Part shown: positions 274-22,940 of the stretch, in pieces
Numbering within the stretch: position 1 is the first letter of the stretch
Layout: each line of letters begins with the position of its first letter
From: Occultella glacieicola
GTDB taxonomy: Bacteria > Actinomycetota > Actinomycetes > Actinomycetales > Beutenbergiaceae
Length of the DNA: 64,000 nucleotides
Direction of reading: 5' to 3'
NCBI RefSeq assembly: GCF_004353825.1
Contig: NZ_SMNA01000006.1
Span: 1 to 64,000, forward strand
Notes under the pieces: generated by a model
Told to the model about the DNA's origin: nothing
Databases searched by the model: none
What the model saw: only the letters and a program-made list of their open reading frames with translations
Made by a program: the position numbers and the translations under genes

Positions 274-929
274 CCGCCTCCATGCCCCTGGTGGGCGACG
301 TGCCCCTCGCGTCGGTGCAACGCATCGAACACGAGCTGGACGGCGGGTTCGAGGCGGTCGGTGTGCCCGGCCTCGACGGAGACGTGCTGCAGCGCGCCGG
401 GCGCGGCGCCCACGTGATCCGCATGAGCGGCGTGCTGGCCGGTGAGACCGCGCGGGACGACCTCGGCACCCTCCAGGGCCTGGCCGGCGCGGGCGAGGAG
501 GTCGTCTTCTCGGCCGACATCACCAGCGCCCTGGAACTCGAGCGGGTGGTCGTCGCGTATCTGCACGTGCAGGAGGTGGCCGGCACCCAGAACCTCATCG
601 GCTACGAGGTGCACCTGGTGGAGAGCCCGCCCCTGCCCCCGCCCGCCGAGGTGAGCGCGTTCGGGGGCCTCGGTGACTTCGGGCTCGGCGACCTCGGCTT
701 CGACACGGACGTGCTCGGCGACATCGCCGGTCTGGCGGGTGAGGTGGCGGGTGCCGTCGACGCCGTGATGGAGGTCGCCGACCAACTCGCCGCCCTGGCC
801 GCCCTCGGATCCATCGACGTCGGTGGCCCGCTCGCCCCGATGAGTGACGCGGTCGGTGCCCTCACCTCCGGCGCCGGCACATTCGCGACCGTGACACAGT
901 CGCTCGGCACCCTCCTCGGGGGGCCGTGA
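270..929 (+). CDS. contractile injection system hub/tail-adaptor-like protein
   Basis: This encodes 219 residues. The first ~115 form a compact beta-rich domain that resembles the small adaptor domains preceding the gpD hub in contractile phages and eCIS (DNA-circularisation-N/Pvc7-type position), with a conserved-looking segment RMSGVLAGE near residue 50. The C-terminal ~100 residues are Gly/Ala/Asp-rich and helical, with repeated GLGDLG-like phrases, and no LysM domain is evident. The start ATG overlaps the upstream stop and the stop overlaps the next start, so expression is coupled. A tail role rests mainly on gene order; the exact family is uncertain. Confidence 0.55.
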   Translation: MTASMPLVGDVPLASVQRIEHELDGGFEAVGVPGLDGDVLQRAGRGAHVIRMSGVLAGETARDDLGTLQGLAGAGEEVVFSADITSALELERVVVAYLHVQEVAGTQNLIGYEVHLVESPPLPPPAEVSAFGGLGDFGLGDLGFDTDVLGDIAGLAGEVAGAVDAVMEVADQLAALAALGSIDVGGPLAPMSDAVGALTSGAGTFATVTQSLGTLLGGP

Positions 930-1960
930 TGAGCGTGTTGACGGTCGCCGCGAGCGCCACGGTCGGCAGCCTGAGCTACGCCTCGAACATCTCCTCGGTC
1001 CGGGTGGACCTCGCGCTCGCCCCCGGAGTGGCCAGCGCACTGCTGGTGCTGCCCCGGGACCTGCGCGTCGAGGCCGAGCCGGGCGAGGACGTCGAGATCG
1101 CCCTCCGCGGCGAGGGCGAGGATGAGGTGCGCGTGTTCACGGGCACCGTGCAGGCCGTGCGGCGCTCGCTCGGCGAGGTCACCGTGATCTGCGGCGACGC
1201 TGCGGCCGCGCTCGCCGGGATCCGCACCGGTGCCACCTTCGAGCAGCAGTCGGCCGGCGCGATCGTGCGGGCCCTGATCCGGGAGGCGGGCGCGCGGGCC
1301 GGTACGGTCGACCTGGACCTCGACCTGGTCACCTACGTGGCTCATCAGGGCCGGACCGCACTCGAGCATGTCGCCACCCTCGCGGGCTGGGCGGGCGCCA
1401 TCGCCTCGTCGAACCCCGACGGCGGCCTGGACGTGCTGCGGTTCCCGTCACCGCCGGCCGACGTGGCGCTTCGCTACGGCCGGGAGATCGCCGAACTCAC
1501 CCTGACCGCCGGGCAACGGTCGGCCGACGTGGCCCTGGCCGGTTCCGGGCCGGCCGGGAGCACGTCCGCACCGGGTGCCCGCCGGCAGAGCACCGGCGTG
1601 GTGCCGAGCGACGCCGCCGGTCCGGACGCGACCACTGTGCGCGAGGCGGCCCCGGCCCTGCGCACGCCGACGGCCGTGAGCGGGGCCACCCGGGCCCGGA
1701 ACGCTCGCAACGGCGCGCCCCGGCTCACGGGCGGGTGCTGGCTGGTGCCCGGACTGCGGGCCGGCACCACCGTGGAGATCGCGGACGCACCACGACCGGG
1801 AGCGGCCGGACCGTGGCTGCTGACCCGGGTGCAGCACCGGGTCGGCCCGGGCGCCCGCGGGCTCACCCGGTTCGAGGGGATCGGCCTCGCGGCCACCGGC
1901 GGTGGAGCGCTCGGAGCCCTGCTCGGCGCCGCCGGCGACGCATTCGGGGGACTGCCGTGA
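929..1960 (+). CDS. gpD/gp27-like baseplate hub protein
   Basis: This 343-residue protein has the layout of phage late control protein D and the gp27 half of VgrG. An N-terminal beta domain reads a ligand-like strand pattern (VEAEPGEDVEIAL, then VFTGTVQAV), a middle helical segment carries the QQSAGAIVRALIREAG motif (residues ~110-125), and a second beta domain follows. A linker of ~50 residues rich in Ala/Thr/Pro separates the halves. It would form the trimeric hub joining tube to spike. ATG 929 overlaps the upstream TGA by one base; GTG 926 is an alternative. Unlike Pvc8/Afp8 or VgrG, the spike OB domain is encoded by the next gene. Confidence 0.7.
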   Translation: MSVLTVAASATVGSLSYASNISSVRVDLALAPGVASALLVLPRDLRVEAEPGEDVEIALRGEGEDEVRVFTGTVQAVRRSLGEVTVICGDAAAALAGIRTGATFEQQSAGAIVRALIREAGARAGTVDLDLDLVTYVAHQGRTALEHVATLAGWAGAIASSNPDGGLDVLRFPSPPADVALRYGREIAELTLTAGQRSADVALAGSGPAGSTSAPGARRQSTGVVPSDAAGPDATTVREAAPALRTPTAVSGATRARNARNGAPRLTGGCWLVPGLRAGTTVEIADAPRPGAAGPWLLTRVQHRVGPGARGLTRFEGIGLAATGGGALGALLGAAGDAFGGLP

Positions 1961-2616
1961 GCTCGGCCCTGTTCGACTCGGTGACCCGGATCGCCCGGCA
2001 CGAGGTATCCGCGCGCCCGGCGGTGGCGATCGGCGTGGTCCGCGACGTGTTCGACGGCTCGGGCGCCCCACCGGACCACGCCGTGACCGTGGAACTGCGG
2101 GAGAGCGGACTCGTGCTGCCCGAGGTGACCATCGCCGTCGGAGCGCTCGGGGTCGCGGCCACCCCCGAACCCGGGGACCTCGTCGTCGTCGTGTTCGCCG
2201 ACGGTGACGTGCACGCCCCGGTGGTGGTGGGCCGGCTCTACCACGCCGACCTCGCTCCACCCGAGCACGGCGCCGGGGATCTCGTGCTCCGGCTGCCCGC
2301 CGGTTCCTCCGACCCCAACTTCCAGTTCGTGCTCCGCGGCGGCGATCCGAAACTCACGATCGGGCTCGGCCCCGACGTCCGGCTCGAGGCGGACGACGCC
2401 ATGGTGCACCTGGTGGTCGGCGACGCCGAGGCGAAACTCGAGGCGGCCGGCGGCGGCCGGGCCGAGATCATCGTCGGCGACGCGACCATCACCCTGACCG
2501 GTCGGGGCGACCTGGAACTGAGGACAACCGGAAAGCTCACGCTGCAGGGTGCGGACGTGGAGGTCAAGGGTGACTCCTCGGTGACCATCTCGGCGCCACA
2601 GGTGAAGGTGAACTGA
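1957..2616 (+). CDS. gpV/gp5-like spike protein (OB-fold plus beta-helix)
   Basis: The start is GTG 1957, overlapping the previous stop (GTGA), giving 219 residues. Residues ~20-100 look like the VgrG/gpV OB-fold, with the typical PEPGDLVVVVFADGD...PVVVGRLY pattern. The remainder is a run of short alternating strands (IIVGDATITLTGRGDLELRTTGKL) typical of a trimeric beta-helical spike. It should sit on the gpD-like hub as the membrane-piercing needle, tipped by the PAAR-like product of the next gene. The order hub, spike, PAAR is standard for contractile systems; splitting of hub and spike resembles phages more than canonical eCIS. Confidence 0.75.
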   Translation: MSSALFDSVTRIARHEVSARPAVAIGVVRDVFDGSGAPPDHAVTVELRESGLVLPEVTIAVGALGVAATPEPGDLVVVVFADGDVHAPVVVGRLYHADLAPPEHGAGDLVLRLPAGSSDPNFQFVLRGGDPKLTIGLGPDVRLEADDAMVHLVVGDAEAKLEAAGGGRAEIIVGDATITLTGRGDLELRTTGKLTLQGADVEVKGDSSVTISAPQVKVN

Positions 2617-2617
2617 C

Positions 2618-3016
2618 ATGGGCAGCCCCGCGGCGAACGGCGACTCGACGGTCCAGGGCGTGGACATCCATATCGTCATGGTGCCCTCACCCGGCGGTCC
2701 GATCCCGACCCCGCTGCCGCACCCGTTCTCCGGGACGATGTCCTCGGGTCTCGTCTCCAGCGTGCTGATCGCCGGGGCACCCGCCGCGGTGGTCGGCTCC
2801 GTCGCCGCCAACAAGCCGGCGCACGTGGCGACCCCGCCCGGGACCTCCTTCCAGAGCCCGCCCAAGGACCAGGGAAAGGTGTCGACGGGCAGCCGGAGCG
2901 TGACGATCGGTGGCCAGGGCGCCGCCCGGGCCGGGGACCCGGTCGAGACCTGCAACGACCCCGCCGACGCACCGGTCTCGGTGATCGTCGCCTCCACGTC
3001 GGTGCTGATCGGTTGA
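2618..3016 (+). CDS. PAAR-like spike-tip protein (DUF4150-like)
   Basis: This protein of 132 residues is full of Pro-Gly turns and short hydrophobic strands (GGPIPTPLPHPFSG, VLIAGAPAAVVGS, RSVTIGGQGAARAGDPVETC), the signature of PAAR-repeat cones. His35, one further His (HVATPP) and Cys in VETCND are candidate metal ligands. Such proteins sharpen the spike trimer and can carry effectors. ATG 2618 follows the spike stop by one base, so the two are translated together. The family assignment is good at the PAAR-superfamily level; the precise subfamily is less sure. Confidence 0.7.
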   Translation: MGSPAANGDSTVQGVDIHIVMVPSPGGPIPTPLPHPFSGTMSSGLVSSVLIAGAPAAVVGSVAANKPAHVATPPGTSFQSPPKDQGKVSTGSRSVTIGGQGAARAGDPVETCNDPADAPVSVIVASTSVLIG

Positions 3017-3022
3017 GTGCCC

Positions 3023-3613
3023 ATGACCGACAGCAGGTACGCGCACCTCGGGACCGACCTCCGCGTCATCCTCGGCCCCGCCGGATTCGGCGCCCACGAC
3101 ACCTCCTCGTTGGACCTGCGGCCCGTGGCCAGGCCCGCACAGCGCGCCGTGCCCACGCGCAGGGGTCTGGGACCCCGGCCGCCGGTCGGTGCCGGCGCCG
3201 CCACCGACGTCGGTGCGCCCGGCGAGGGGGGATCGGCGCAGGGCTGGTCGCCCGAGCCGCCGGGCGCCGTCGAACTCGCGGACCTCGACCCGGTCACCGG
3301 GCGGGAGAACCTCGCGCAGGCCCTCACCCTGCGGCTGCTCACCCCGAAGGGCACGCTGGCCGCCCTCGGGCACGCCGGGTACGGCTCCCGCCTCGGGGAA
3401 CTGATCGGACGGAACAAGACCGAGGCGCTGCGCGGGCTGTGCCGCGCTTACATCCTCGAGGCGGTCCGCGAGGAACCCCGGGTGCAGGACAAGCCTCGGG
3501 CGATCGTCTTCGATCCGCGCCGTGAGCAGCCGTGGAACTTCGTGGTGGAGATCGTGGTGGTGCCCGTGACCGGCGGCGACCCGGTGACCCTCGGTCTGGA
3601 GGTAGGACTGTGA
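3023..3613 (+). CDS. gp25-like baseplate wedge protein
   Basis: ATG 3023 gives 196 residues; GTG 3017, adjoining the upstream stop, is an equally possible start. The C-terminal ~115 residues match the GPW/gp25 family: a run of REN.AQAL.LRLLTPKG, GYGSRLGELIG, then an Arg/Glu helix and a closing beta segment (WNFVVEIVVVPV). Gp25 nucleates sheath assembly at the baseplate. Compared with the usual ~110-140 residues there is an extra Pro/Gly/Ala-rich stretch at roughly residues 35-90, which looks like a disordered insertion. The stop overlaps the next start. Confidence 0.75.
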   Translation: MTDSRYAHLGTDLRVILGPAGFGAHDTSSLDLRPVARPAQRAVPTRRGLGPRPPVGAGAATDVGAPGEGGSAQGWSPEPPGAVELADLDPVTGRENLAQALTLRLLTPKGTLAALGHAGYGSRLGELIGRNKTEALRGLCRAYILEAVREEPRVQDKPRAIVFDPRREQPWNFVVEIVVVPVTGGDPVTLGLEVGL

Positions 3614-5349
3614 CCGAGCAGCCGACCTACGGCCCACGCCTGTACCCGGACATCGTGCGGGACCTGCTCACCACGCTTACCGGCGGCACGGTGCGCGAGG
3701 CGGTCACCGCCCCCGTGGACGGACCGGTGGTGCTGGACCGGCTCGCCCAGCGGCCGGTCCGCCGGGTCTCCCACCTGGACGGGCTCACCCCGGTCGGCGC
3801 CACGAACGTCCCGGTGCGGTTCACCGACGCGGACTTCGAGCTCGCCGACCTCGACGGCGACGGTGAACCGGACGCGATCGTGTTCCGCGAGAACGGCCGC
3901 AAGCCGGCCCCGGGCACCACACTGACGGTCAACTACTACCCGGCGCAGATCGCCAGGCCGGTTCCGTTGACCGACCTGAACGTCGGATCCGTGGTGCGGA
4001 CCCTGCTCGAGACGGTCGGCCGGGAGGTCGCCCAGACCGAGCAGTACCTCGACCTCATCTACCGGTCGGCGTTCATCGAGACCGCCGAGGGCGGTTCGCT
4101 CGACCGGGTGGTCGCGCTGATCGGCATGCAGCGGCTGCCCGCGGGCTTCCCGCTGGTGAGCGTGCAGTTCTCCCGGAACGCGGCCACCGGCGGCCGGGTC
4201 ACCCTGCCGGCGGGCACCGTGGTCACCGACGCCGCCGCGAACCGGTACGCCACCGTGACGGATCTGAGCCTGGAGCCCGGCGAGGCGTCCCGCTCGGTGC
4301 TCGCCGCCGGCCTCACCCCGGACACCGCGCTCGTCGGGCCCGCCGCGCTCGACCGGTTCGAGACGATCGTCGCCGGGGTCACCACGGTCACCAACCCCGG
4401 TGAGGCCTACCGGCAGGCGGCCGCCGAGAGCGACACCGACCTGCGCCGCAGGTCCCGCGGTGCCCTGCACGGGGCCGTGCGCGGCACCATCGATGCGCTG
4501 CGCTTCGGGGTGCTCGCCGTGCAGGGGGTCCGATCGGTCGAGATCACCGAGTTCCCGAACGGGCGCGCGGGCGAGGTTCGGATCGACGTGGCCTACGAGA
4601 GTCCGGACGACACCGTGACACCCGGCGCGGTCGCTCGCCGCATCGAGGAGCTGCGCCCGGCCGGGATCAGGATCGTGCCCTGGCCGCCCGCGCCGGCGGC
4701 ACGCAGGCAGATCCGGGTGCAGGTGGCCCTCGTGCTCGCCGGGACCGGCGTGTCCGGCGCGGAGTTCGCCGGCCTGACGACCGGCGTCGAGGAACGGGTC
4801 ACGGCCCGCCTCACCGGTCTGGCCCCGGGCGCCCCGGTGCGGGTGAACGCCCTGGTCGCGGCCGTGCTCGCCGACGCCCGCATCGCCGACGCCGAGATCG
4901 GCTTCACCGGTGCCGACGGCACCGCGATCGGCACGCTCACCCTCGCCGCTGGGGAGGTGCTGGACGTGCTGCACCCGTTCGCCTTCCCGCCGCCGACGGC
5001 CGAACGCACCGACGCGACCCAGGTCGCGACCGTCTCCTTCGTCGAGGTCAGCCTGCCCGTGCACCTCCAGCCCGGCGTCACCCTCGCGGAGGCCGCGGAG
5101 GCGATCGGCCTCGCCATCGACGGCCACCTCGCCACCCGCAGCCCGGACCGCCCGCTCACCGTCGACGGCGTCGCGGCCGCCGTTCGGGACGACACCCGGT
5201 ACTCGCTCGTGCGGGAACTCGCGAGCCTGCTCGTGGAGCACGCCGGGCAGTTCACCCAGCTCCTCGACGGCCAGGGCAGCTACCAGGTGGGTGCGGCGGA
5301 GCAGCTCCAGCGCCGGGGGGACGCCGGCGTGAGCGAGGACGGGACATGA
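3610..5349 (+). CDS. baseplate J/gp6-like assembly protein
   Basis: The start is GTG 3610, overlapping the gp25-like stop (GTGA), giving 579 residues. The protein matches the baseplate J / Pvc11-Afp11 group: an N-terminal helical part with ETVGREVAQTEQYLDLIYRSAFIETAEG (~130-160, quoted in pieces), a central beta domain with LPAGTVVTDAA, and the diagnostic E.YRQAAAESDTDLRRRSR...GTIDALRFG segment at ~265-305. It builds the wedge ring that clamps hub and sheath. A calcium-loop-like DLDGDGEPDAIVF stands near residue 82. The next gene starts in its stop codon. Confidence 0.75.
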   Translation: MTEQPTYGPRLYPDIVRDLLTTLTGGTVREAVTAPVDGPVVLDRLAQRPVRRVSHLDGLTPVGATNVPVRFTDADFELADLDGDGEPDAIVFRENGRKPAPGTTLTVNYYPAQIARPVPLTDLNVGSVVRTLLETVGREVAQTEQYLDLIYRSAFIETAEGGSLDRVVALIGMQRLPAGFPLVSVQFSRNAATGGRVTLPAGTVVTDAAANRYATVTDLSLEPGEASRSVLAAGLTPDTALVGPAALDRFETIVAGVTTVTNPGEAYRQAAAESDTDLRRRSRGALHGAVRGTIDALRFGVLAVQGVRSVEITEFPNGRAGEVRIDVAYESPDDTVTPGAVARRIEELRPAGIRIVPWPPAPAARRQIRVQVALVLAGTGVSGAEFAGLTTGVEERVTARLTGLAPGAPVRVNALVAAVLADARIADAEIGFTGADGTAIGTLTLAAGEVLDVLHPFAFPPPTAERTDATQVATVSFVEVSLPVHLQPGVTLAEAAEAIGLAIDGHLATRSPDRPLTVDGVAAAVRDDTRYSLVRELASLLVEHAGQFTQLLDGQGSYQVGAAEQLQRRGDAGVSEDGT

Positions 5350-12231: not shown

Positions 12232-15200
12232 ATGCCCGACTTCGTCGCACAGCTCGAGGGCCTCGACCTCGCCCAGATCGATGCCACCCTCGGGCGGGTC
12301 AGGTCCTCGCTCGAGCAGGCCCAGGAGCTCGGCATCGGTGGCCTCGAGCCCACGGTGCTGCTCGGGGACGACCTCGGCACGGCGATCCGGACGGTCTCCG
12401 ACCTCGGCGCCGAGCCCGACGGCCTGGCCAGGCTCGGTCGCATCGCGCTCGAGGAGCTCGGTGGACTCATCGAGATTCCCGAGCTCGGTGACCTCGACCG
12501 GATCCTGGCCGGGATCGGGGACCTGGTCGAGCTGATCACGCAGGTCGCCTCGGTGATCGCCACCGACGGGTCCGACGGTCGGGGAGTCCTCGACCGGATC
12601 CTGACCACGGTCGGCGGCTCGATCGGACTGGAGGACCTCGTCGCCGAGGTGACCCGCCGGGCCGCGGCAACCCTCGGGGTGGAGATCCCGGCGTCCCTGG
12701 CCGCGACCCTGAGCGCCCTCGAGCGGCTGGGCTCCGCGGGCACGCTGCCCTCCCAGGAGGTGGCCTCGCTGCTGGCCACCGTGTTCGTCGGGCTCGACCT
12801 CGGCGACCTGAGCACGGTGACGGCGTCCACCACGGCGACGCTGACGCTCGTCACGGGTGCCGGGAACCGCACCGGCCTGGACGCGGCCGTGGCCGGCGTA
12901 CGCGCACGGCTGAGCGACGCCTACGACCTCATCGACGACGGTGCGGAGGTTGACATCACCGCGCTCGTCGGAGCCATCGACGCGATCGGCACCGACCTGG
13001 ACGGTCTTGGCAGCGATCTCGACCGCTTCGTCGCCGGGCTCGCCACGGACCTGCGCACCGCCGCGAACACGATGACCGAGCTCGACCTCACGGGCCGGAC
13101 CGAACGGCTCCTCGCGGCGCTGCCGCTGCCGGAGGAGGACCTGCCCCGGGTCATGGTCGACTCCCTGGCGAACCTGGCGGAGATGTTCGAGGCCATGACC
13201 GTCGAGGCGCTCGAGACGGCGCTGACCGGCGTGACCGAGCACCTCACGGGCCTGCTCACCGCCGGGCCGGTCGGGGACCTGATGGCCGGGATCGACGACG
13301 TCTTCGCCGAGCTCGGTCGGCTCATGGACGCGCTGCCGCTGCGCAGCGCACGCGACGCGCTCCTCGACGCGCTTGCCGGCGCGCAACAGGAGATCCTCGC
13401 ATTCGACGGGTTCGCCTTCCTCGACGACCTGCTCGCCCCGGTCCGCGACCTGGAGCGTGCCGTCCGCGACCTGGATCTGAGCACGATCACCGAGGCAGTC
13501 GATGCCGTCGTCGCGCAGGTGAACGGCGTCTTCACCGACTTCCCGATCGAGGACCTGCGCGACGCCGTTGACGCCGTCATCGAGCCGCTCGGGGAGATCC
13601 TGGACGAGCTCACCCCGGTCGTGCTGCAGATCGCCGACGAGCTCGAGGGGCTCGTCGCCGAGCTCGAGGGGGTCGACTTCGAGGCGGCCGGCACCGCCAC
13701 CCTCGACCTGTTCCGCGGGATCCGGGACCAGGTCCGCGAGGCGGTCGACGGCGGCGACGTGCCCGAAGCGGTGAAGGTGGTCGTGGCGGGCACGGCGGCC
13801 GTGCTCGCCGAACTCGACCTCGCCGCCGAACTCACCGCACCCTTCGACGACGCGATCGCAGGCATCGACGTCGGGGCGCTCCTGCAACCGATCGAGGAGG
13901 TCTGGCAGAGTGCGGGCGACACGTTGCGCCGGGCCACCCCTGCGGCGCTCATCGCCGAACTCGACCCGCCGTTCGACGAGCTCCTGGCCAAGGTGGACCA
14001 GCTGTCCGTGGCACCACTGATCGGGTCGCTGTCCGAACTCTTCGGCGACCTGCTCAGCCGGCTCACGGCGCTCGACCCCCGCGCCCTGATGGCCCCACTG
14101 GAGCAGGAGTTCCAGGCCCTGCTGCACCGAGTGCGGGCGCTGCTCGACCCGGGCCCGTTGTTCGCGCCGCTGCGCGCCGCCTACGAGGCGCTGCGCACCC
14201 TGGTGGACGGCATCGACATCGACGCCGCGGTGCGCGCCGCGCTCGGGGGCCTGATCGACGTCCCGGACGCGCTGAACCAGGCCGTCGGCGGCGCCCTCGC
14301 CGCCTCCGGTGGCGGCGGTGCCGCGGTGCCCACGACCGGCGCCGTGTTCCGGTTCGGCGACGTGCTCCGGCCGGCGGCGGCGTTCGTGGGGGAGATCCGC
14401 AGCCGACTCGACTCCCTCGCCGACGACGTCCTGGGGGCCGCGCTCGCGCAGCTCAGCGACGTCACGCGGGCGCTGTGGTCGCTCCTGGACCCGGCGGCCG
14501 GATTCGCCGTGTCGGTCGCGGACGCGCTCGACGCGCGGCTGGCGCTGGCCGACCCGAACTCCGGCGTCGGTCCCGTGGCGGAACTGCGCAGCGCCGTGGA
14601 GTCCTTCACGGCAGCGGTTGCCCGGATCGAGGTCGACGCCGACGCCCGGCTCCGGCTCGAGACTGCGACCGGGTCGCTCCGCTTCGACTCCCGGGTGCGC
14701 GTGAGCGCGGAGACCGGCTCGGACCTGTCCACCCACGCCGGCCGGGTCCGCGACGGCGCCGGCGGGACCGAACTCGGCCGGTCCACCCGACTGCTTGCCC
14801 GCTCCCTGGAACGCCTGCTACCACGAGAGCTGCTCGGTGGGCCACTCAACCCGAGCGCCGCCGTGGACGTGCTGCTGGACGCCGTGTTCGACCGGTTGCC
14901 GCTGGCCGACCTCGCTGACCAGCTGGATGCGATCGGTGACCGGATCCAGGCGCGGCTGCTCGCCTTCGCCGACGAACTGTCGCTCGGGTTGTTCCGGGTC
15001 TGGACCGCGCTGTTCGCGAGTCTCGAACCGCTCCTGCCGGACTCCCTGATCGCCCGGATCCAGGCGGGCCTCGACTCGGTGTTCGCCCGTCTTGATGTGC
15101 TCGACCCGGCCGTCGTCGAAGGGGAGGTCCGTGCCGTCGTCGATGCCGCCGTCTCCCTCCTCGGGGTGCACTCACCCGCCGCGCTCGCCCGCGAGCTCGG

Positions 15201-15537
15201 GGCCGTATTCGACGCCGCCCTGGACCGGGTCCGCGAGCTCGACCCGGCCACGCTGCTGGGTGACCTCGACCCGTTCGCCGGGCTCAAGGAGCAACTCGAG
15301 CTCCTCCGTCCCTCGGTGGTGCTCGAGCCACTGGTGCTGCGGGCCGAGTCCTTCACGGTCGCGCTCGAGACGATCGCCGGGATCGACCTGAGTTTCGTCG
15401 GCGAGCTCGTCGCGGACATCCGCGGCGTCTTCACCACGGTCCTGGACGGAGTGGAGACGGAGTGGGACGCCCTGCTCGCCGAGCTCGCCCAGATCGGTGG
15501 TTCCGCCGGTGTCTCGACCAGTGTCTCGACCGGGTGA
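12232..15537 (+). CDS. 1101-residue acidic helical protein, candidate tape measure or fibre core
   Basis: ATG 12232 lies three bases after the previous stop, with gaggg just before it. The protein is almost entirely amphipathic helix with Leu/Asp/Glu repeats, has a Gly4 linker near residue 692, and ends in a Ser/Thr/Gly tail. It is strikingly acidic, I count only three lysines, and I see no cysteine. Length and composition fit a tape-measure protein (Afp14/Pvc14 type), which is otherwise missing from the visible operon. The strong negative charge and lack of hydrophobic segments also allow an extended fibre or effector carrier. The function is inferred from shape and position only. Confidence 0.45.
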   Translation: MPDFVAQLEGLDLAQIDATLGRVRSSLEQAQELGIGGLEPTVLLGDDLGTAIRTVSDLGAEPDGLARLGRIALEELGGLIEIPELGDLDRILAGIGDLVELITQVASVIATDGSDGRGVLDRILTTVGGSIGLEDLVAEVTRRAAATLGVEIPASLAATLSALERLGSAGTLPSQEVASLLATVFVGLDLGDLSTVTASTTATLTLVTGAGNRTGLDAAVAGVRARLSDAYDLIDDGAEVDITALVGAIDAIGTDLDGLGSDLDRFVAGLATDLRTAANTMTELDLTGRTERLLAALPLPEEDLPRVMVDSLANLAEMFEAMTVEALETALTGVTEHLTGLLTAGPVGDLMAGIDDVFAELGRLMDALPLRSARDALLDALAGAQQEILAFDGFAFLDDLLAPVRDLERAVRDLDLSTITEAVDAVVAQVNGVFTDFPIEDLRDAVDAVIEPLGEILDELTPVVLQIADELEGLVAELEGVDFEAAGTATLDLFRGIRDQVREAVDGGDVPEAVKVVVAGTAAVLAELDLAAELTAPFDDAIAGIDVGALLQPIEEVWQSAGDTLRRATPAALIAELDPPFDELLAKVDQLSVAPLIGSLSELFGDLLSRLTALDPRALMAPLEQEFQALLHRVRALLDPGPLFAPLRAAYEALRTLVDGIDIDAAVRAALGGLIDVPDALNQAVGGALAASGGGGAAVPTTGAVFRFGDVLRPAAAFVGEIRSRLDSLADDVLGAALAQLSDVTRALWSLLDPAAGFAVSVADALDARLALADPNSGVGPVAELRSAVESFTAAVARIEVDADARLRLETATGSLRFDSRVRVSAETGSDLSTHAGRVRDGAGGTELGRSTRLLARSLERLLPRELLGGPLNPSAAVDVLLDAVFDRLPLADLADQLDAIGDRIQARLLAFADELSLGLFRVWTALFASLEPLLPDSLIARIQAGLDSVFARLDVLDPAVVEGEVRAVVDAAVSLLGVHSPAALARELGAVFDAALDRVRELDPATLLGDLDPFAGLKEQLELLRPSVVLEPLVLRAESFTVALETIAGIDLSFVGELVADIRGVFTTVLDGVETEWDALLAELAQIGGSAGVSTSVSTG

Positions 15538-15547
15538 GGAGGGGGCG

Positions 15548-18500
15548 ATGAGCACCATCGAGGACGTCGGGCCGGGCGTCACCGCGGCTCCGCGGGTGGT
15601 CGCGGACGCCGCGCGCGGACGACGGGTCGTCACGCTCGACCCGGCCGGCAGGCCGGTCCGGGTCGAGCTGCCCGACGGCGAGTCGCTGCACGTCACCCGG
15701 GACCCGACACTGCAGCGGCTCGCCCTCCGCGACGGCCACGGCACCCTGATCGCCCGGATCCACACCGATACCGCCCCCGGCGCGTGGTACCGGCGTCCTC
15801 CGCCACCGGGCGTGGACACCGTGCACCGCGTCAGCGCCGACGATCCGACCGGCACCACGTCCCTGACCGCGTCGGCGACCATGGTCCGCCAGGAGCGCGA
15901 CGGGGCCGTCCTGCGGATCGACTCCGACCCCGACGGTCGTCCCGCCCGGGTCACCCTGCCCGGGCTCGCCCGGGACCTGCACTACCGGCCGGTGGGCGCC
16001 GGCTGTTGGGATGTCACGGTCGGCGGTGTCCGCCTCCTCGGCCTCGCCGGGGGACCCGACGCCCTGCGCTGCGACCTGGGCGAGGGCGCCGGTTGGGTGC
16101 GCCGGGAGTGGCCCGGGGTGCTGACGTTCACCGGCACCGACGGCACCGAGATACTCACCGAACGCAGGGACCGGGCGGGCCGGGTGCACTCGCGGCGCTG
16201 GCCCGGCACGGCCGAGTTCTCCTACGAGCGGGACGACCGGTCCCGGCTGGTGACCTGGACGCGCACCGGGCCCGACGGCGCCGCGCTCGCGCAGCGACGC
16301 ACCTACAGTGGGCCGGAACTGTCCGCCGTCGTCACCGGGCGGCGTCGCACCGTGGTCCGCACCGACGTCGGCGGCCGGGTCCGCAGGTTGATCGGCCCGT
16401 CGCAGACCGTGACGTTCGACTACGACCCGAACGGACGACGCACCCGGCGCACCTCCGGCACTGGAGACAGGGCCGCGACCGAGTACCGCTACGACGCGCT
16501 CGGACAACTGGTCGAGGCGCGCGGTCCGGACGGCGAGTCGACCCGATACGGCTGGGACGGACTGGGCCGACGGCTCTGGGTGGAGCGCGCCGGCCGCCGG
16601 TTCACCGAGCACCGCGACCCGACCGGGCGGCTGTGGTCGGTCACCGACGCGGACGGGGCCCTCGTGCACGCGTTCGTGTGGTGGGAGGGGCGGGTGCTGG
16701 CCCGCCTCGGCCCGGACGGACGCCTCGACGAGGCGTACCTGACCGACCGGGTCGGTACGCTGCTCGGCCTCGCGACCCCGGCCTCGGGCTGGGTCTTCTC
16801 CGAAGCGATCCAGCCGCCGTTCGGTGCCGTGACCGCAGCCTGGCGTCCCACCCTGTTCGGGCACATCGCCGACGGGGCGACCACCCTGATCTGCTTCGGC
16901 GGCCGCGAACTGGACACCGAGACGGGGACGTTCCTCACGCCGGACCCCTGGCACGGCGGCCCGGACGATCCCCGGGCCGTCGGCGGTCAGACGGCGACGG
17001 AGCTGGCCCGGGTCGCGGAGAGGCCGGCGAGCGGGGTCCACGCCTATCACCTCAGCCAGGGCGACCCGCTGAGCCGGCCGGACGTGGACGGCCACTTCGC
17101 GTGGGGCAACCTGGTGCTGACGATCTTCCTCGGCCCGACGTGGGGCTTCCCGCTCACCTCGTTGTCCGTGTTCGCGTTCGAACCGCTGAACCTCTACTTC
17201 GAGATCTTCGGCCTGCTCGGTGCGCTGTTCACCTGGAACGGTCACCCCTGGCCGCAACACTCCCTCGGCACGATGCGCGGCGGCACCGCAGGCCGGGTGG
17301 GCACGGTCGCGCTGGCGCTGAACGGGTTCATCCCACGCGTCTTCGCCGGCGGTATCGACGCCGACCGCGCCGTCACGATCGGGCACGTCGCCTGGGAGAA
17401 CCGTCGGTTCTTCGAACTCCTCGACCGGCCCCGGGTGCTCGAACTGGACGATGTCCGCGGCACACCCCGGCCCGACGGCACCCCGAGCGGCGACGCACGC
17501 GCGTTCTCCGACGTCCGACAGGGCTCGGTGCTCGCCCTGGTGGGCACCGACACGGACGCCCGCACCTGGGTGCAGGGCACCTGGTGGAGCCGCGGCCCGG
17601 GCAACGCGGTCGGCCTTCGCGGGGGTCGGCAGTCGTTCGAGGACCGCGGCGCGGCGGGCGCGGCGCACGTACGCGGCACGATGTTCATGGCGCAGCCGCT
17701 GCGCGAGATCATGCCGCGCCCGTTCAGCGCCGATGACGGCGGGCGGATCGAGGTGCACGAGTACGCCGCCGTGGGCGGTCACAGCAGCACCGGGGTACTG
17801 GTCAGCGAGGTCTGGTTCGCGTTCTCGGTGCCTGCGGACGCCGGGCTCGCCGCCGCCACCGTGGTCGAGGTCGCCGCCGCCGGGGCAGTGGCCCCGGCCT
17901 ATGGGGCGATCACGCAGGTGGTCCCCGCGAGCGAACCGGTCGTGATCCTCGACCACGAACTGCCGAGCCGGTTCCACAGCCCGAGCGTGCGCGCGGACGC
18001 CGTCGCGCTGCGGGTGATGACGTCCGGCACCGCCACGAGCGCCGGCTGGGCCGCGGTCGCGGCACCGCCGAACCGGGCCGTGCATCTCACGGCGCCCGGC
18101 CATCCGGTCGCCGTCGACGACGTCTTCGCCTTCCTGCCCACCGCGCCCGGCGGCCCGGTCCCGGCCACCCCTGAACGTCCGCAGACCTATACCCGCGTCA
18201 GCAAGGTCACCCTGACGCTCACCCTCGACCCTCCCATCGCCTCGCTCACCCTCGCCGGCGCGGCCGCGTTCCGGTTGACCACCGACGGCACGGCGCTGCT
18301 CGGCTCGGTCGCCGACCCGGCCGCCCACCCGGACGTGGTCACGTTCCTCGACGACCCCGGCCTGGACGTCGGCGACGACCTCGCCGTCGCGCCGACGGGC
18401 ACCGGGGCCACGGTGCAGTACGCCCGGGTCAGCGCCGTGACCCCGGCGACACCCGCGGTGCCGCCGGACGGGGGCACGCCCGGCACCCCGGCGGTGCCTG

Positions 18501-21500
18501 CGAGCGTGAGCGTCGAGCCACCACTGACCCTGGCCGCGGCAACCGGGGTGCGGGTGACCCGGCTGAAGGAATCCGATCGGAGTCAGGACACCGGCACCGG
18601 CGCCACCCAGTCCGGGGACGACCTCGCCCTCGAGGTGCGCTCCTCGGCCGTGTTCGCCGTCGGCCAGGCGGTGCGCCTCGAGGTCGGTGGCGCCCACCAC
18701 GTCCGCCGGGTCTCCGCCGTCGCGGACGTGGCACTCGAGACGGTGGACGAACTGGTGGGTACGGCGCCGTTCACCCTCACCAGGTTCACCGGGGCCTCCT
18801 CGACCACGAGCGCGCACCTCTCCGCGTCGCGGTTCGTCCGGCACACCGGCGGGGCGTTGCCGTCGGTGTACGGCGACTGGCCCGCGGAGCTGATGGGACT
18901 GGTGACCGGGCTCTACTGGCCGGACCACCAGGCGATGGGCTGGCGGTTCTTCCTCAAGGGCGCTCCGGCCGGGCTCCACCCGGACTTCCGGGACACCTGG
19001 CAGCCTCTGACCCTGGGCGCGGATCACTATTGGCTGCTCGCCTCCGACCTGAGGATCACCGGCGAGGGGGTGAACCAGTTCTGGGAACCGGATCTCGACG
19101 ACACCTACCCCGACCGGCACCGTCAGCGCATCTTTCCCGCGTCCGCCAGCCCGCCCGCGCCGCCGATCCCAGTCAGCGTGCGTGGCTTCGTGACGACCGG
19201 GGTGCACCGGCCCGACGCGGGTGGCGGCAAAGTGCTGGTCCGACGCGCCGAGGTCCAGGTGCCGGAGGCTCCGCTCGTGCGCTGGAGCCTGGCCGACTCG
19301 CTCGCCGAGCACGAACTCTCGCACGCCGTGCAGAACACCTACTGGGGTCCGCTGCTCGGCGCCCTGCCCGTCCAGGGCGTGATCCGCACCCTGAGGGACG
19401 TCTGGGCGGCCACCGGCGACGAGCCGCCGACCTGGTTGTCCTGGACCCCGTTCGACGAGGCCGCCGGCGCGGTGGGCTTCAACGACACGAACATCTTCGA
19501 GCTGTTCAGCATCGGCGGCATCATGCAGCTGCTCTGGACGTTCGTGATCCTCGGCCCGGCGCTCGGCAACGAGGAGGCCCGGGAGGCGCTGCTCTCCCTG
19601 GACTTCGACGATTGGGCCCAGGTGTTCAACCCGGTCAACCAGCAGATCATCCGCAACCTCCCGCAGGTGGACCCGGACGCTCCCGCGGACGAACGGTGGC
19701 CGATCGCGCTCGGCCGGTTCTTCGCCTCCGGGCTCGATCTGCGTTCCTGGACCCCCTTCCTCGGGCTCGTGCCCACGTGGCTGCCGGACGGGGAGAAAAA
19801 CTTCCTCGAGCAGCAGGCGAGCCGGTGGAGCGGTGACCTGTACTCCACCCTGCTGACCGCGAACGACCGGTTCAACCTGACCACGTCGGCGATCGGCCGG
19901 GACATCCACGACGCCGACCTGTCCGTGGCGCTGGGTCGGGGGGTGCGGATCATGGGGTTCTTCAACAACCGGGACGACCGCAACACCCAACTCGACTCGT
20001 GCGACGCCCCGGGTTCGTCGCTCACACGGCTCGACGCGCCGCCCGACCACCCGTCCGGCACGCCACCGGTCATGCAAGAGTTCAACCAGTTCTTCGAGCT
20101 GACCGCGGACGCCACGGGTGCGCACCTGTGGGTGCCCGAGGAGCTCTACGAGTCGGTCCGCACCACCGCGCCGACGACGGTCCAGGTGGACGGCCCGGTG
20201 CCGTCCGGCGGCGGGGCGGCACCGACCGCGGGGTTCCTGCGGGTGCCCGCGGGCGGGGTGTTGGCGCCCCGGCTGCGCGCCATCGTGCCGGTCCCGCCGG
20301 CCGTGATGCGCTCCGTCGGGTTCTACCTGATCGGCGCCGCGCCCGGCACCTGGCACGTCGCCACCGACACGCCCAGCAGCACACCGGCCGCCGACAACGC
20401 CCACACCAACACGGCGGAGATCACCTTTTCGAGCGCCGTGCGGCTGGGCGAGGAGGACGTCGCGTGGAACGAACCGTTCGCCTCGGGCGTCCCGGCGACC
20501 ACCCCGCAGGCGACCCTGGTCGAGCGGTTCATCACCGAGACGCAGCGGTTGCGGGTCGAGGCCGTCAAGGTGAACCAGCTCGTGGCGCAGGCCGAGGCCC
20601 CGATCAGGCTGACCTCCGGAGCGGACGGTGAGGGCTGGGACCTCACCGTCGACCTGCCCGCGCCGCCGGCCACACTGCCGCACGAGGCGAGGGTCCGGAT
20701 CTGGGCCACGATCGGCAGGAACGACCCTGAGTTGTTCGATCTGCACCAAGCCGACATCGACTCCCTTCGGGACCGGCGCAGTTACCTCGACGCCGACCTG
20801 TTCGTCCCGGTCCGGGACTTCCTGGTGCGCGTCGTCGACCTGCCCGTCCTGCCCGACGGGGTCATCGCGGCCGCCGAGGACTTCGACGTGGACGTACCGG
20901 TCAAGCTGAGCGGGCCGGCCGCGATCATCCCGACCGGGACCACTCTCGCCGTCGAGCGGGTCGAGGACCGGCCGCCCCGGGGTGAGCGGTGGCGGTTGCA
21001 CGTCGCCGGGCGCCGGGCGGTGCCCGAGCAGGTGGTGGTGCCCGTGACCGTCCGGTTCGGCACCGGCACCGGCACGGTGGACCGCACGTTCGACGTCACG
21101 GTCAACCCGAACTTCACGATCGACAAGGCCCCCGCCGTCGCGGCCTACGAGGCGACCCCGGCCGCGCCTCTGGTCCTGACCGTGACCGGGGCGACCGGGG
21201 CGTTGTCCGTGGCGAACGAGCCGCCGGCCGACTCCCGCACGGTCGTCACCATCACCGGGACCACGGTCACGGTCACCGTCCAGGGGCCCGGTCCCCGGGC
21301 GGACACCGCCTACGACCTGGTACTCGAGGACGGCAACCAGCGCCTCGGCATCCGCCGGATCACGCTCAAGGGCACCTGGACCACCGTGCGCCTGCACACG
21401 AAGGTGCTCACCGAGCCGGATGTCGACGTCGACACCGCGATCGAGGCGATGCGGGAGGTCTACGAGAGCGTGGGCGTCGCCGTCGTGCACGTCTCCACGG

Positions 21501-21880
21501 AGGAGCTCACCCTGCCCGCACTGAACGACGTCGACGTCGGCACGTGCGTGACGGGGGTGACGACCGCCGAGCAGAACACGCTCTTCGCGAACCGCAACAG
21601 TGCCCTGGCCAGCGACGTCGTCGTCTACTTCGTCCGTTCGACGGTCCCGCCGCTCAACGGCTGCGCCGCACACCCGCCGGGCCGGCCGGGTGCGGTCGTC
21701 GCGCGGGGCGCCACCCGGTGGACCCTCGGGCACGAGGTGGGACACGTGCTCGGGCTCGCGCACGTCGACCCGACCGACCGGCTGATGACCGGCGGCGGCA
21801 CGTCGAACATCACGAACCCGCCCCCGGACCTGACCGCCGCCGAGACGGCCACGATGTTCACCAGTCCCTTCACCAACTGA
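15548..21880 (+). CDS. giant RHS-repeat protein with two zinc-metalloprotease-like motifs, candidate eCIS effector
   Basis: GAGGAGGGGG upstream sets ATG 15548, giving 2110 residues. Residues ~50-505 carry YD/RHS repeats (FDYDPNGRRTRR at ~290) and the RHS-associated core (GGRELDTETGTFLTPDP around 455-467, ending RPDVDGH). The core is short, and the usual DPxG self-cleavage pair is altered. A hydrophobic stretch follows at ~519-570, then a long unrecognised middle with beta-rich parts. His1255-Glu-Leu-Ser-His1259 (HELSHAVQ) resembles DUF4157-type zincins of eCIS cargo. The C-terminus has a full metzincin motif HEVGHVLGLAH (2062-2072) and Met-turn Met2080. It is most likely a delivered toxin or protease; structural use is not excluded. 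Confidence 0.65.
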   Translation: MSTIEDVGPGVTAAPRVVADAARGRRVVTLDPAGRPVRVELPDGESLHVTRDPTLQRLALRDGHGTLIARIHTDTAPGAWYRRPPPPGVDTVHRVSADDPTGTTSLTASATMVRQERDGAVLRIDSDPDGRPARVTLPGLARDLHYRPVGAGCWDVTVGGVRLLGLAGGPDALRCDLGEGAGWVRREWPGVLTFTGTDGTEILTERRDRAGRVHSRRWPGTAEFSYERDDRSRLVTWTRTGPDGAALAQRRTYSGPELSAVVTGRRRTVVRTDVGGRVRRLIGPSQTVTFDYDPNGRRTRRTSGTGDRAATEYRYDALGQLVEARGPDGESTRYGWDGLGRRLWVERAGRRFTEHRDPTGRLWSVTDADGALVHAFVWWEGRVLARLGPDGRLDEAYLTDRVGTLLGLATPASGWVFSEAIQPPFGAVTAAWRPTLFGHIADGATTLICFGGRELDTETGTFLTPDPWHGGPDDPRAVGGQTATELARVAERPASGVHAYHLSQGDPLSRPDVDGHFAWGNLVLTIFLGPTWGFPLTSLSVFAFEPLNLYFEIFGLLGALFTWNGHPWPQHSLGTMRGGTAGRVGTVALALNGFIPRVFAGGIDADRAVTIGHVAWENRRFFELLDRPRVLELDDVRGTPRPDGTPSGDARAFSDVRQGSVLALVGTDTDARTWVQGTWWSRGPGNAVGLRGGRQSFEDRGAAGAAHVRGTMFMAQPLREIMPRPFSADDGGRIEVHEYAAVGGHSSTGVLVSEVWFAFSVPADAGLAAATVVEVAAAGAVAPAYGAITQVVPASEPVVILDHELPSRFHSPSVRADAVALRVMTSGTATSAGWAAVAAPPNRAVHLTAPGHPVAVDDVFAFLPTAPGGPVPATPERPQTYTRVSKVTLTLTLDPPIASLTLAGAAAFRLTTDGTALLGSVADPAAHPDVVTFLDDPGLDVGDDLAVAPTGTGATVQYARVSAVTPATPAVPPDGGTPGTPAVPASVSVEPPLTLAAATGVRVTRLKESDRSQDTGTGATQSGDDLALEVRSSAVFAVGQAVRLEVGGAHHVRRVSAVADVALETVDELVGTAPFTLTRFTGASSTTSAHLSASRFVRHTGGALPSVYGDWPAELMGLVTGLYWPDHQAMGWRFFLKGAPAGLHPDFRDTWQPLTLGADHYWLLASDLRITGEGVNQFWEPDLDDTYPDRHRQRIFPASASPPAPPIPVSVRGFVTTGVHRPDAGGGKVLVRRAEVQVPEAPLVRWSLADSLAEHELSHAVQNTYWGPLLGALPVQGVIRTLRDVWAATGDEPPTWLSWTPFDEAAGAVGFNDTNIFELFSIGGIMQLLWTFVILGPALGNEEAREALLSLDFDDWAQVFNPVNQQIIRNLPQVDPDAPADERWPIALGRFFASGLDLRSWTPFLGLVPTWLPDGEKNFLEQQASRWSGDLYSTLLTANDRFNLTTSAIGRDIHDADLSVALGRGVRIMGFFNNRDDRNTQLDSCDAPGSSLTRLDAPPDHPSGTPPVMQEFNQFFELTADATGAHLWVPEELYESVRTTAPTTVQVDGPVPSGGGAAPTAGFLRVPAGGVLAPRLRAIVPVPPAVMRSVGFYLIGAAPGTWHVATDTPSSTPAADNAHTNTAEITFSSAVRLGEEDVAWNEPFASGVPATTPQATLVERFITETQRLRVEAVKVNQLVAQAEAPIRLTSGADGEGWDLTVDLPAPPATLPHEARVRIWATIGRNDPELFDLHQADIDSLRDRRSYLDADLFVPVRDFLVRVVDLPVLPDGVIAAAEDFDVDVPVKLSGPAAIIPTGTTLAVERVEDRPPRGERWRLHVAGRRAVPEQVVVPVTVRFGTGTGTVDRTFDVTVNPNFTIDKAPAVAAYEATPAAPLVLTVTGATGALSVANEPPADSRTVVTITGTTVTVTVQGPGPRADTAYDLVLEDGNQRLGIRRITLKGTWTTVRLHTKVLTEPDVDVDTAIEAMREVYESVGVAVVHVSTEELTLPALNDVDVGTCVTGVTTAEQNTLFANRNSALASDVVVYFVRSTVPPLNGCAAHPPGRPGAVVARGATRWTLGHEVGHVLGLAHVDPTDRLMTGGGTSNITNPPPDLTAAETATMFTSPFTN

Positions 21881-21891
21881 GTAGGCTCGAG

Positions 21892-22269
21892 ATGACCGTC
21901 ACGATGCAGGACGTCCGCCGGATCCTCGACCCGGAGGAGCCCAGGTACGACCGGATCCCGGCCCTCGGACCGCAGGCCCTGCCCCACCTGCGCGAACTCG
22001 CCGCCGGCGACGACCCGATGCTCGCCTCCAAGGCCGTCTTCGCCGCCAGCATGCTCGAGGGTGCCACCGGTGCCCCGGTGGTCGACGCGGGTGCCCACCA
22101 CGAGGACCCGATCGTCCGGGTCGCCGCTGCCGCAGCGACCCAGAATCTCCCGGCCGAGGAAGCCGGGGCGGTGCTGCGCGACCTCGTCGGCGACGACGAC
22201 TCCGGCGTGCGCAAGGTCGCCCTCGCGTCGGCTCCCCGACCGGACCCCGGCCCATCCGTCAGCGCCTGA
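21892..22269 (+). CDS. small HEAT-repeat-like protein
   Basis: This protein of 125 residues begins 11 bases after the RHS stop. It is built of short paired helices typical of HEAT/PBS-lyase repeats: LGPQALPHLRELAAGDD, ASKAVFAASMLEG, then DPIVRVAAAAATQNLP and DDSGVRKVALAS. About three to four repeats are visible. Such proteins bind other proteins. Being the last gene of the operon, straight after a candidate effector, it could be a chaperone, loading factor or immunity partner, but none of this is shown by the sequence. Several small HEAT proteins also occur in unrelated operons. Confidence 0.6.
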   Translation: MTVTMQDVRRILDPEEPRYDRIPALGPQALPHLRELAAGDDPMLASKAVFAASMLEGATGAPVVDAGAHHEDPIVRVAAAAATQNLPAEEAGAVLRDLVGDDDSGVRKVALASAPRPDPGPSVSA

Positions 22270-22328: not shown

Positions 22329-22334
22329 GGGGTG

Positions 22335-22940
22335 GTGCCACGCAGTGCCGTGCGGCATGCCCGTCGTGCCCTGACCGACCGTGGGAGCGCGCGCCGAGCC
22401 ACGCTCCTGCTGGTGTCCTGCGAGAGCGTCGTCGGCGCCTGTGTCCTCGTGCTCGCGCTGGCCGGCCTCGGTCTGCTCCAGCGCGGCCCGTCGTGGTCCA
22501 CGCCGACGTCGGGGGAGTTGTCCTCGGCGTTCGGGCCACGGGCCGACCCGTTCACCGGCGTCCCCGGCCTGCACGCCGGGCAGGACATCCGCAACGACTG
22601 TGGGACTGCGGTGTTCGCCGCGGCGGACGGCGTGGTGCGTTACGCGGCACCTGGCCCGTACCAGGGCCGGACCGGCAACCAGATCGTCATCGACCACTCA
22701 GGCGGCATCAGCACGCGGTACGGCCACGTCCTCACCGGAACTATGGTGGTCGAAGCAGGGGATCGGGTCACCGCCGGGTCACAGATCGCGCAGATGGGTG
22801 GCGACCAGGACCTGGACCCGATCGGCGCCGGCAACAGCACCGGCTGTCACCTGCACTTCGAGGTAAACATCGACGACGAGCCGGTCGATCCGCTCGCGTA
22901 CCTGCTCACGCTGGGCGTGACGATCGCGGCCGAGCCCTGA
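22335..22940 (+). CDS. M23 family (LytM-type) peptidoglycan endopeptidase
   Basis: The protein has ~200 residues. Tandem GTG codons stand at 22332 and 22335; the second is favoured by the -10 hexamer spacing. A membrane segment (LLLVSCESVVGACVLVLALAGLGLL) spans ~25-50 and should anchor it or act as a signal sequence. The peptidase domain shows the metal ligands His80 and Asp84 in HAGQDI, the substrate-groove segment with RYGHV, and the HLHFEV motif (His172 and His174, counting from GTG 22335). It would cut peptide cross-bridges in the wall. It lies 62 bases after the eCIS genes but reads like an ordinary cell-wall gene, and has its own promoter. Confidence 0.85.
   Translation: MPRSAVRHARRALTDRGSARRATLLLVSCESVVGACVLVLALAGLGLLQRGPSWSTPTSGELSSAFGPRADPFTGVPGLHAGQDIRNDCGTAVFAAADGVVRYAAPGPYQGRTGNQIVIDHSGGISTRYGHVLTGTMVVEAGDRVTAGSQIAQMGGDQDLDPIGAGNSTGCHLHFEVNIDDEPVDPLAYLLTLGVTIAAEP

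What the first reader, a model, noticed from the sequence alone, without database searches (positions are those of the whole stretch)
15548..21880. RHS giant with two zincin motifs at the end of an eCIS operon
One 2110-residue protein joins a short RHS core (residues ~50-505) to ~1600 further residues. These carry a DUF4157-like HELSHAVQ (1255-1262) and a complete metzincin site HEVGHVLGLAH with Met-turn (2062-2080). RHS toxins normally end in a C-terminal domain of 100-300 residues, so this extension is very long. The DPxG self-cleavage motifs of the core are altered, and two protease motifs could provide a different release mechanism: one part processing, one part toxic. RHS proteins are usual cargo of T6SS and of some eCIS; double zincins in one RHS protein are not something I know as described.
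Basis: partly seen in the sequence, partly recalled or inferred. Interest (0 to 1): 0.85.

Follow-up and report, generated by a model that had tools for sequence, protein, structure and literature searches.

The report
Protease toxin with HEAT-repeat immunity partner
The tail end of a giant bacterial protein looks like a movable protein-cutting toxin domain, found each time beside a small gene that may protect the producer; a second protease suspected in the same protein remains unproven.

Summary
The 2110-residue protein is real (ATG 15548 behind a GGAGG, one coding frame). It has a short RHS region and both HExxH motifs, but their support differs. The C-terminal one (residues 1946-2110) is a metzincin/matrixin-like domain that recurs behind unrelated carriers. 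In 8 of 8 family members found (six genomes of the window's phylum; plasmids of Streptomyces and Spirosoma) the next gene encodes a 125-154-residue HEAT-repeat protein. None of 23 motif-only zincin loci has it nearby. Used alone against 72,556 plasmids, the HEAT protein finds only the two plasmids with the protease. Best reading: an exchangeable protease-toxin plus HEAT-immunity cassette of polymorphic-toxin type, carried here by an RHS protein at the end of a contractile-injection operon. The central HELSHAVQ is not DUF4157/eCIS_core by profile, has no convincing homologue and could not be folded, so a second active zincin and a release role are unproven. No AAA+ ATPase or eCIS_core gene was seen in the operon, so 'eCIS' is only partly supported. 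Toxicity and immunity are inferred. New variant of a known kind.

The parts
15548..21880 (+). giant RHS-type effector candidate, 2110 aa
   Evidence: open frame and frame-specific GC3; GGAGG five bases before ATG 15548; RHS/YD repeat hits
16160..17089 (+). short, degenerate RHS/YD region and its end (residues ~205-514); altered DPxG motif at residues 511-515
   Evidence: PDB phmmer hits to Tse5 and Rhs proteins over parts of residues 205-414; motif position
19310..19333 (+). central HELSHAVQ motif, residues 1255-1262; orphan region, zincin fold unproven
   Evidence: no PF13699 match; no homologue with E below 3 in plasmids, none in 396 phylum genomes, Pfam or PDB; AF2 uninformative
21383..21877 (+). 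C-terminal metzincin (matrixin-like) cartridge, residues 1946-2110
   Evidence: 7 homologues along its length at 36-68% identity (distances); PDB profile hits 4on1 E 2.3e-5, ADAMTS-5 6e-4, over the zinc-site stretch
21731..21763 (+). zinc site HEVGHVLGLAH, residues 2062-2072; Met-turn Met 2080 follows
   Evidence: H2062, E2063, H2066, H2072, M2080 and C2000, C2039 invariant in 8 of 8 members
21892..22269 (+). HEAT-repeat protein, 125 aa, candidate immunity protein/inhibitor; 11 nt after the effector gene
   Evidence: Pfam HEAT_2 E 8.4e-7, above cut-off; homologue next 3' of the protease in 8 of 8 loci
926..1960 (+). baseplate hub (Phage_GPD-like)
   Evidence: Pfam E 9.5e-7, 28.7 bits, just below its cut-off of 30.1
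1957..2616 (+). spike, gpV/VgrG-like
   Evidence: NCBIfam VI_Rhs_Vgr E 1.1e-5, phage_P2_V 5.8e-5, below cut-offs
2618..3016 (+). PAAR spike tip
   Evidence: Pfam PAAR_motif E 1.7e-7, above cut-off
3017..3613 (+). gp25-like baseplate protein
   Evidence: phrog_975 E 6.4e-15
3532..5349 (+). baseplate J-like wedge protein
   Evidence: phrog_6 E 6.5e-35
12232..15537 (+). 1101-aa protein of unknown function directly upstream of the effector gene
   Evidence: no Pfam match above its cut-off

Best explanation
The C-terminal 165 residues are a mobile protease cartridge, a minimal metzincin without prodomain. It works as the toxin part of a polymorphic effector. The gene directly downstream makes a HEAT-repeat protein that binds the protease and keeps it inactive in the producer. 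In this genome the cartridge has been joined to the end of a giant protein with a short RHS region, placed last in an operon for a contractile, phage-tail-like injector with a PAAR tip. The injector would carry the giant protein into another cell, where the protease, free of its HEAT partner, cleaves proteins. Shown here: the domain by sequence, its zinc ligands and their invariance, its recurrence behind different carriers, and linkage to the HEAT gene in every member found. Inferred: delivery, proteolysis, toxicity, neutralisation, and how (or whether) the cartridge is released.
For: 8 of 8 family members found carry the HEAT gene next 3' (window, L005, L006, L008, L009, L050, L051, L056). 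In 7 of 8 the genes overlap by up to 23 nt or lie up to 18 nt apart; in the distant L051 the gap is 233-341 nt, depending on the start. Control: 0 of 23 motif-only zincin loci (L010-L032, about 1.5 kb to either side, less at contig ends) hold it. Reciprocal: the HEAT protein alone, searched in 72,556 plasmids at E<=1e-3, finds only the two records that hold a full-length protease match. Carriers differ: RHS; FG-GAP repeats in 2; LGFP repeats; zinc-ribbon repeats; none recognised in 3. PMC3482391 (abstract start) describes polymorphic toxins as C-terminal toxin domains varied by recombination with standalone toxin cassettes. The catalytic set is invariant in 8 of 8. HEAT repeats are a described immunity type, Imm-HEAT (PMC3482391 passages). 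The effector gene is at the 3' end of the operon, common in the experimentally studied eCIS according to PMC8213781 (passage).
Against: No activity was measured. The other members were not shown to lie beside an injector (their surroundings were looked at only in part), and I saw no obvious Sec signal in them by eye (not computed), so some may act inside the cell. HEAT repeats are a generic interaction module, and the L051 partner is only a weak relative (E 1.5e-7). The window HEAT protein is shorter at its C-terminus (125 aa against 149-154). Distances of protease and HEAT do not correlate significantly (Mantel r 0.55; 604 of 5040 permutations as high, 7 members, L051 left out). The zinc motif departs in two members: L050 has Thr for the Gly of HExxHxxGxxH, L051 has one extra residue before the third His (alignment). 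The RHS region is much shorter than the solved Rhs chains and its cleavage motif is altered, so release is unexplained. No structure was obtained for the domain (service busy).
Confidence: 0.6

Rival explanations
1. Protease plus HEAT regulator that works inside the producing cell (regulated protease, toxin-antitoxin or defence pair); its fusion to the RHS protein is incidental.
For: Three of 8 members have no recognised carrier (L006, L009, L051; only L051 of these was scanned with Pfam), L006 sits on a plasmid beside unrelated genes, and no Sec signal is obvious by eye. The linkage is equally explained.
Against: Five of 8 are fused behind RHS, FG-GAP, LGFP or zinc-ribbon repeats, the carrier pattern of effectors; two invariant cysteines would suit a disulphide outside the cytosol (inference).
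Confidence: 0.22
2. One reading: central zincin (HELSHAVQ, perhaps with E1421 in EQQAS as third ligand) cleaves the giant protein to release the C-terminal toxic metzincin.
For: HExxHxxQ is expected 0.00095 times per shuffled protein; the PVC-metallopeptidase has the signature HExxHxxQ-E and a proposed self-processing role (PMC3482391 section 13); the RHS self-cleavage motif is altered.
Against: No PF13699 match at E<=10; no homologue in 396 phylum genomes, viral contigs or PDB, and in 72,556 plasmids none at E<=0.01 and only two hits at E 3 and 8 with the short query, so conservation cannot be tested; the fold prediction was meaningless. PMC11297309 (passage) cites an eCIS toxin, Cgo1, whose growth inhibition is independent of the DUF4157 metalloprotease motif.
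Confidence: 0.12
3. The HEAT protein is a loading adaptor or chaperone for the protease rather than an immunity protein.
For: Same operon position and linkage; adaptors are often encoded next to effectors (general knowledge).
Against: The HEAT gene follows the cartridge also where no carrier is recognised (L006, L009, L051), and lies 3' as cognate immunity genes typically do (general knowledge).
Confidence: 0.1

Closest known systems
Polymorphic toxin systems with Imm-HEAT (PMC3482391)
   Same: Exchangeable C-terminal toxin cartridge, variable N-terminal carriers including RHS, adjacent gene with HEAT repeats
   Different: In the passages seen, HEAT immunity is listed with Ntox34 and Tox-REase-7, not with a peptidase; 'matrixin' has 0 occurrences in the held text
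Tox-MPTase1-5, ALF-MPTase and HopH1-like metallopeptidase toxins (PMC3482391 section 17)
   Same: Zincin-type toxin domains, the Tox-MPTases typically after RHS repeats
   Different: Tox-MPTases are described as distantly related to Wss1; Pfam at E<=10 returned for the window protein only RHS_repeat and weak M7/M10 (HMMER drops most matches above about 0.1)
PVC-metallopeptidase / DUF4157 / eCIS_core effectors (PMC3482391, PMC8213781)
   Same: HExxHxxQ motif upstream of a C-terminal toxin, long linker, contractile injector
   Different: PF13699 does not match the window protein
T6SS Rhs effectors (Tse5, RhsA, Tse15)
   Same: YD/RHS repeats, PAAR in the operon, C-terminal variable part
   Different: RHS region of ~500 residues, altered PxxxxDPxGL motif, ~1600 residues behind it; PAAR is a separate gene
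Matrixins, archaemetzincins, ADAMTS, fragilysin
   Same: HExxHxxGxxH plus Met-turn; best PDB sequence 4on1 E 2.3e-5
   Different: In nearly all listed PDB matches the similarity is confined to the zinc-site stretch; an NPPP motif follows the Met-turn in all 8 members

Membership tests
metzincin clan | HExxHxxGxxH/D plus Met-turn | tested here: met
   window: complete; three His, Glu and Met invariant in 8 of 8, but L050 has Thr for the Gly and L051 one extra residue before the third His
metzincin clan | metzincin fold | not tested
   structure job not accepted, machine busy; sequence profile hits only
Pfam Peptidase_M10 (matrixin) | score above gathering cut-off | tested here: not met
   window 13.8 bits against 24; best of the members scanned, L005, 23.8 (L006 and L009 not scanned)
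polymorphic toxin cartridge | same C-terminal domain on unrelated N-terminal carriers | tested here: met
   RHS, FG-GAP, LGFP, zinc-ribbon, none recognised; L051 has about 95 residues behind the domain
polymorphic toxin cartridge | adjacent immunity-type gene | tested here: met
   HEAT gene in 8 of 8, 0 of 23 controls; immunity function itself not tested
polymorphic toxin cartridge | toxicity and cognate neutralisation | not testable with these tools
   needs experiment
RHS effector | RHS/YD repeats | tested here: met
RHS effector | canonical PxxxxDPxGL self-cleavage motif | tested here: not met
   DPLSRPDVDGH at that place (motif from PMC8765631 passage)
DUF4157 / eCIS_core | PF13699 profile match in the central region | tested here: not met
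   no match at window locus at E<=10; match at C11 E 2.3e-33
eCIS | sheath, tube, gp25, baseplate J, hub/spike, PAAR | tested here: inconclusive
   hub, spike, PAAR, gp25, J present; sheath on contig C5 whose edge fits this operon; tube only weak, E 0.089
eCIS | dedicated AAA+ ATPase | tested here: inconclusive
   no AAA Pfam hit among the operon proteins scanned, but part of the operon may be lost in the contig gap

The most novel reading that the evidence does not exclude
A so far unnamed toxin-immunity family: a prodomain-less metzincin cartridge kept in check by a dedicated HEAT-repeat inhibitor, moving as a two-gene unit between phyla and between carriers (RHS in a contractile injector, FG-GAP, LGFP, zinc-ribbon), with a second, orphan zincin inside the RHS carrier that replaces the lost aspartyl self-cleavage.
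Probability: 0.08. Interest if true: 0.75.

Novelty: new variant of a known kind. Interest (0 to 1): 0.5.

Why it matters
PMC8213781 calls it an intriguing mystery that antibacterial eCIS toxins in most cases lack adjacent immunity genes (passage). Here a protease cartridge at the end of a contractile-injection operon has a linked candidate immunity gene that can be tested with two small genes. If right, it adds a metzincin/HEAT pair to the polymorphic toxin repertoire and gives a protein inhibitor of a metzincin built from HEAT repeats.

Tried and rejected
Full-length relatives: genome contigs gave 3 loci, all Microbulbifer and aligned over the RHS repeats; none in 3 of 3 genus-mates, none in viral contigs. 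Central region: no relative, and only hits at E 3 and 8; residues 510-781 alone: none in plasmids. DUF4157 reading rejected by profile. Phage collection: no relative of the protease domain; viral contigs: none. Co-divergence of protease and HEAT: not significant. Sigma-70/terminator consensus scan behind the cassette: nothing. Literature: 'matrixin' + 'HEAT repeat' + 'immunity protein' gave 1 paper, whose passages are not about this. In the listings (capped at 15 of 17, 12 of 27 and 12 of 341 papers; titles and starts of abstracts) I saw no paper on a metzincin/HEAT toxin pair. The library is open-access only.
Full report
Anatomy. The finding's gene is real: 15548-21880 +, 2110 aa, with consistent third-position GC in one frame and a GGAGG five bases before the ATG. 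A mirror frame of 2110 codons (15431-21763) is open on the other strand; I take it as a by-product of 72% GC, and GC3 favours the + gene. Pfam gives RHS_repeat (E 9.7e-11) and only sub-threshold M7/M10 hits at 2056-2096. NCBIfam gives YD repeats. The nearest solved proteins to residues 1-514 are Rhs effectors.

The two HExxH motifs. Both are there and both are rarer than composition predicts, with the reservation that they were picked after the fact. They are not equal in support. The central one, HELSHAVQ at 1255, lies in a region with no relative in 396 genomes of the phylum (residues 510-1560, own genome apart), in 72,556 plasmids at E<=0.01 (a 79-residue query at E<=10 gave two hits at E 3 and 8), in viral contigs, Pfam or the PDB. 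The DUF4157 profile, now called eCIS_core, does not match it at E<=10, although it finds a strong match elsewhere in this genome at C11:174502 (E 2.3e-33; confirmed on the protein), close to a second sheath gene. A single-sequence AlphaFold model of residues 1101-1560 is worthless (pLDDT 34.6). So the central zincin is a motif, not a demonstrated domain. E1421 in EQQAS is a possible third ligand; that is my reading of the sequence, with no test.

The C-terminal domain. Residues 1946-2109 match two plasmid-encoded proteins, one of Streptomyces avidinii and one of Spirosoma (for context). A profile of these found two more in 396 phylum genomes: of 26 genomes with E<=1e-3, 3 hold full-length members (own, G133, G048) and 23 match only the zinc-site stretch. 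The enlarged profile at E<=1e-12 found own, G465 and G672 in 394 class genomes, only G133 in 39 genomes of its class, and G048 and G964 in 385 of its class. In most genomes only 9 first-look candidates were scored, so members may have been missed. That makes 8 members including the window. In all 8 the three zinc ligands, the catalytic Glu, the Met, two Cys and an NPPP stretch are invariant. L050 has Thr in place of the Gly of HExxHxxGxxH, and the distant L051 has one extra residue before the third His.

The HEAT gene. In the window, ORF 21892-22269 (+) starts 11 nt after the effector gene and encodes 125 residues with HEAT repeats (HEAT_2 E 8.4e-7). A homologue lies next downstream of the protease in 8 of 8 loci. 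A model built from six of them finds the seventh (L051, E 1.5e-7) and the eighth (L056, 3e-39), which were not in the model, and finds nothing at E<=0.1 in the 23 motif-only loci (those loci reach about 1.5 kb to either side, less at some contig ends). The HEAT protein alone, searched in 72,556 plasmids at E<=1e-3, returns two records, the same two that hold the full-length protease. Against: the distances of the two partners are not significantly correlated (r 0.55, 604 of 5040 permutations, L051 left out), and the window HEAT protein is about 25-30 residues shorter at its C-terminus.

Carriers. The protease lies behind RHS repeats (window), zinc-ribbon repeats (L005), FG-GAP repeats (L008, L050) and LGFP repeats (L056), and has no recognised carrier in L006, L009 and L051. 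L051 has about 95 residues behind the domain. This swapping of carriers around a constant tail plus partner gene is the picture of polymorphic toxins in PMC3482391 (abstract start, passages, and sections 13 and 17 seen).

The injector. Window genes 926-5349 encode hub, spike, PAAR, gp25-like and baseplate J-like proteins. The window is the start of contig C20. A sheath and a small possible tube gene lie at the edge of contig C5, pointing outwards. The C-terminal part of this sheath (31% over about 107 residues) and the window's 270-929, hub, spike, gp25 and J genes match the same clusters in genus-mates G001-G003, so C5 and C20 probably hold two ends of one operon. No AAA+ domain was found among its proteins scanned with Pfam and no eCIS_core in the window; the gap may hide genes. 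I therefore call it a contractile injection operon and leave 'eCIS' open. The 3 genus-mates have no relative of the giant protein (0 of 3).

Mechanism. Most likely the protease is the toxin and the HEAT protein its inhibitor in the producer. The injector would deliver the giant protein. Shown: domain by sequence, invariance, linkage, carriers. Inferred: the rest. Release is open: the RHS region is short, its self-cleavage motif is altered (compare PMC8765631 passages), and the central motif is only a candidate.

Prior art. PMC3482391 describes Imm-HEAT, RHS with metallopeptidase toxins, and a second PVC-metallopeptidase at the C-terminus. PMC8213781 (passages) describes DUF4157 with linkers of more than 1000 residues and the missing immunity genes. 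PMC7400221 (a table passage) lists a HEAT-repeat protein in a putative T6SS immunity islet of Salmonella Paratyphi C. The specific metzincin/HEAT pair did not appear in what I saw of searches, which cover open-access papers only and were seen as listings of titles and abstract starts, some of them capped.

Noticed in passing
15431-21763 (-): Antisense frame open for 2110 codons opposite the giant gene; GC3 supports the + gene, so probably a product of 72% GC.
   Followed up: partly
G000 contig C11:174502-176664 (L049): A second contractile-injection cluster with a strong eCIS_core (DUF4157) gene and a sheath gene; no window operon gene matches L049 by tblastn at 1e-3.
   Followed up: partly
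L038-L043 (genus-mates G001-G003): Related contractile cluster, 32-54% identical in baseplate genes; in G003, the only one listed, it holds proteins of 1343, 1371 and 1457 aa.
   Followed up: partly
22332-22940 (+): M23 peptidase gene after the HEAT gene; Pfam E 3.1e-23.
   Followed up: no
L050:2770-3198 (-): Repeats like those of the carrier upstream of the protease, in another frame; left as found.
   Followed up: no
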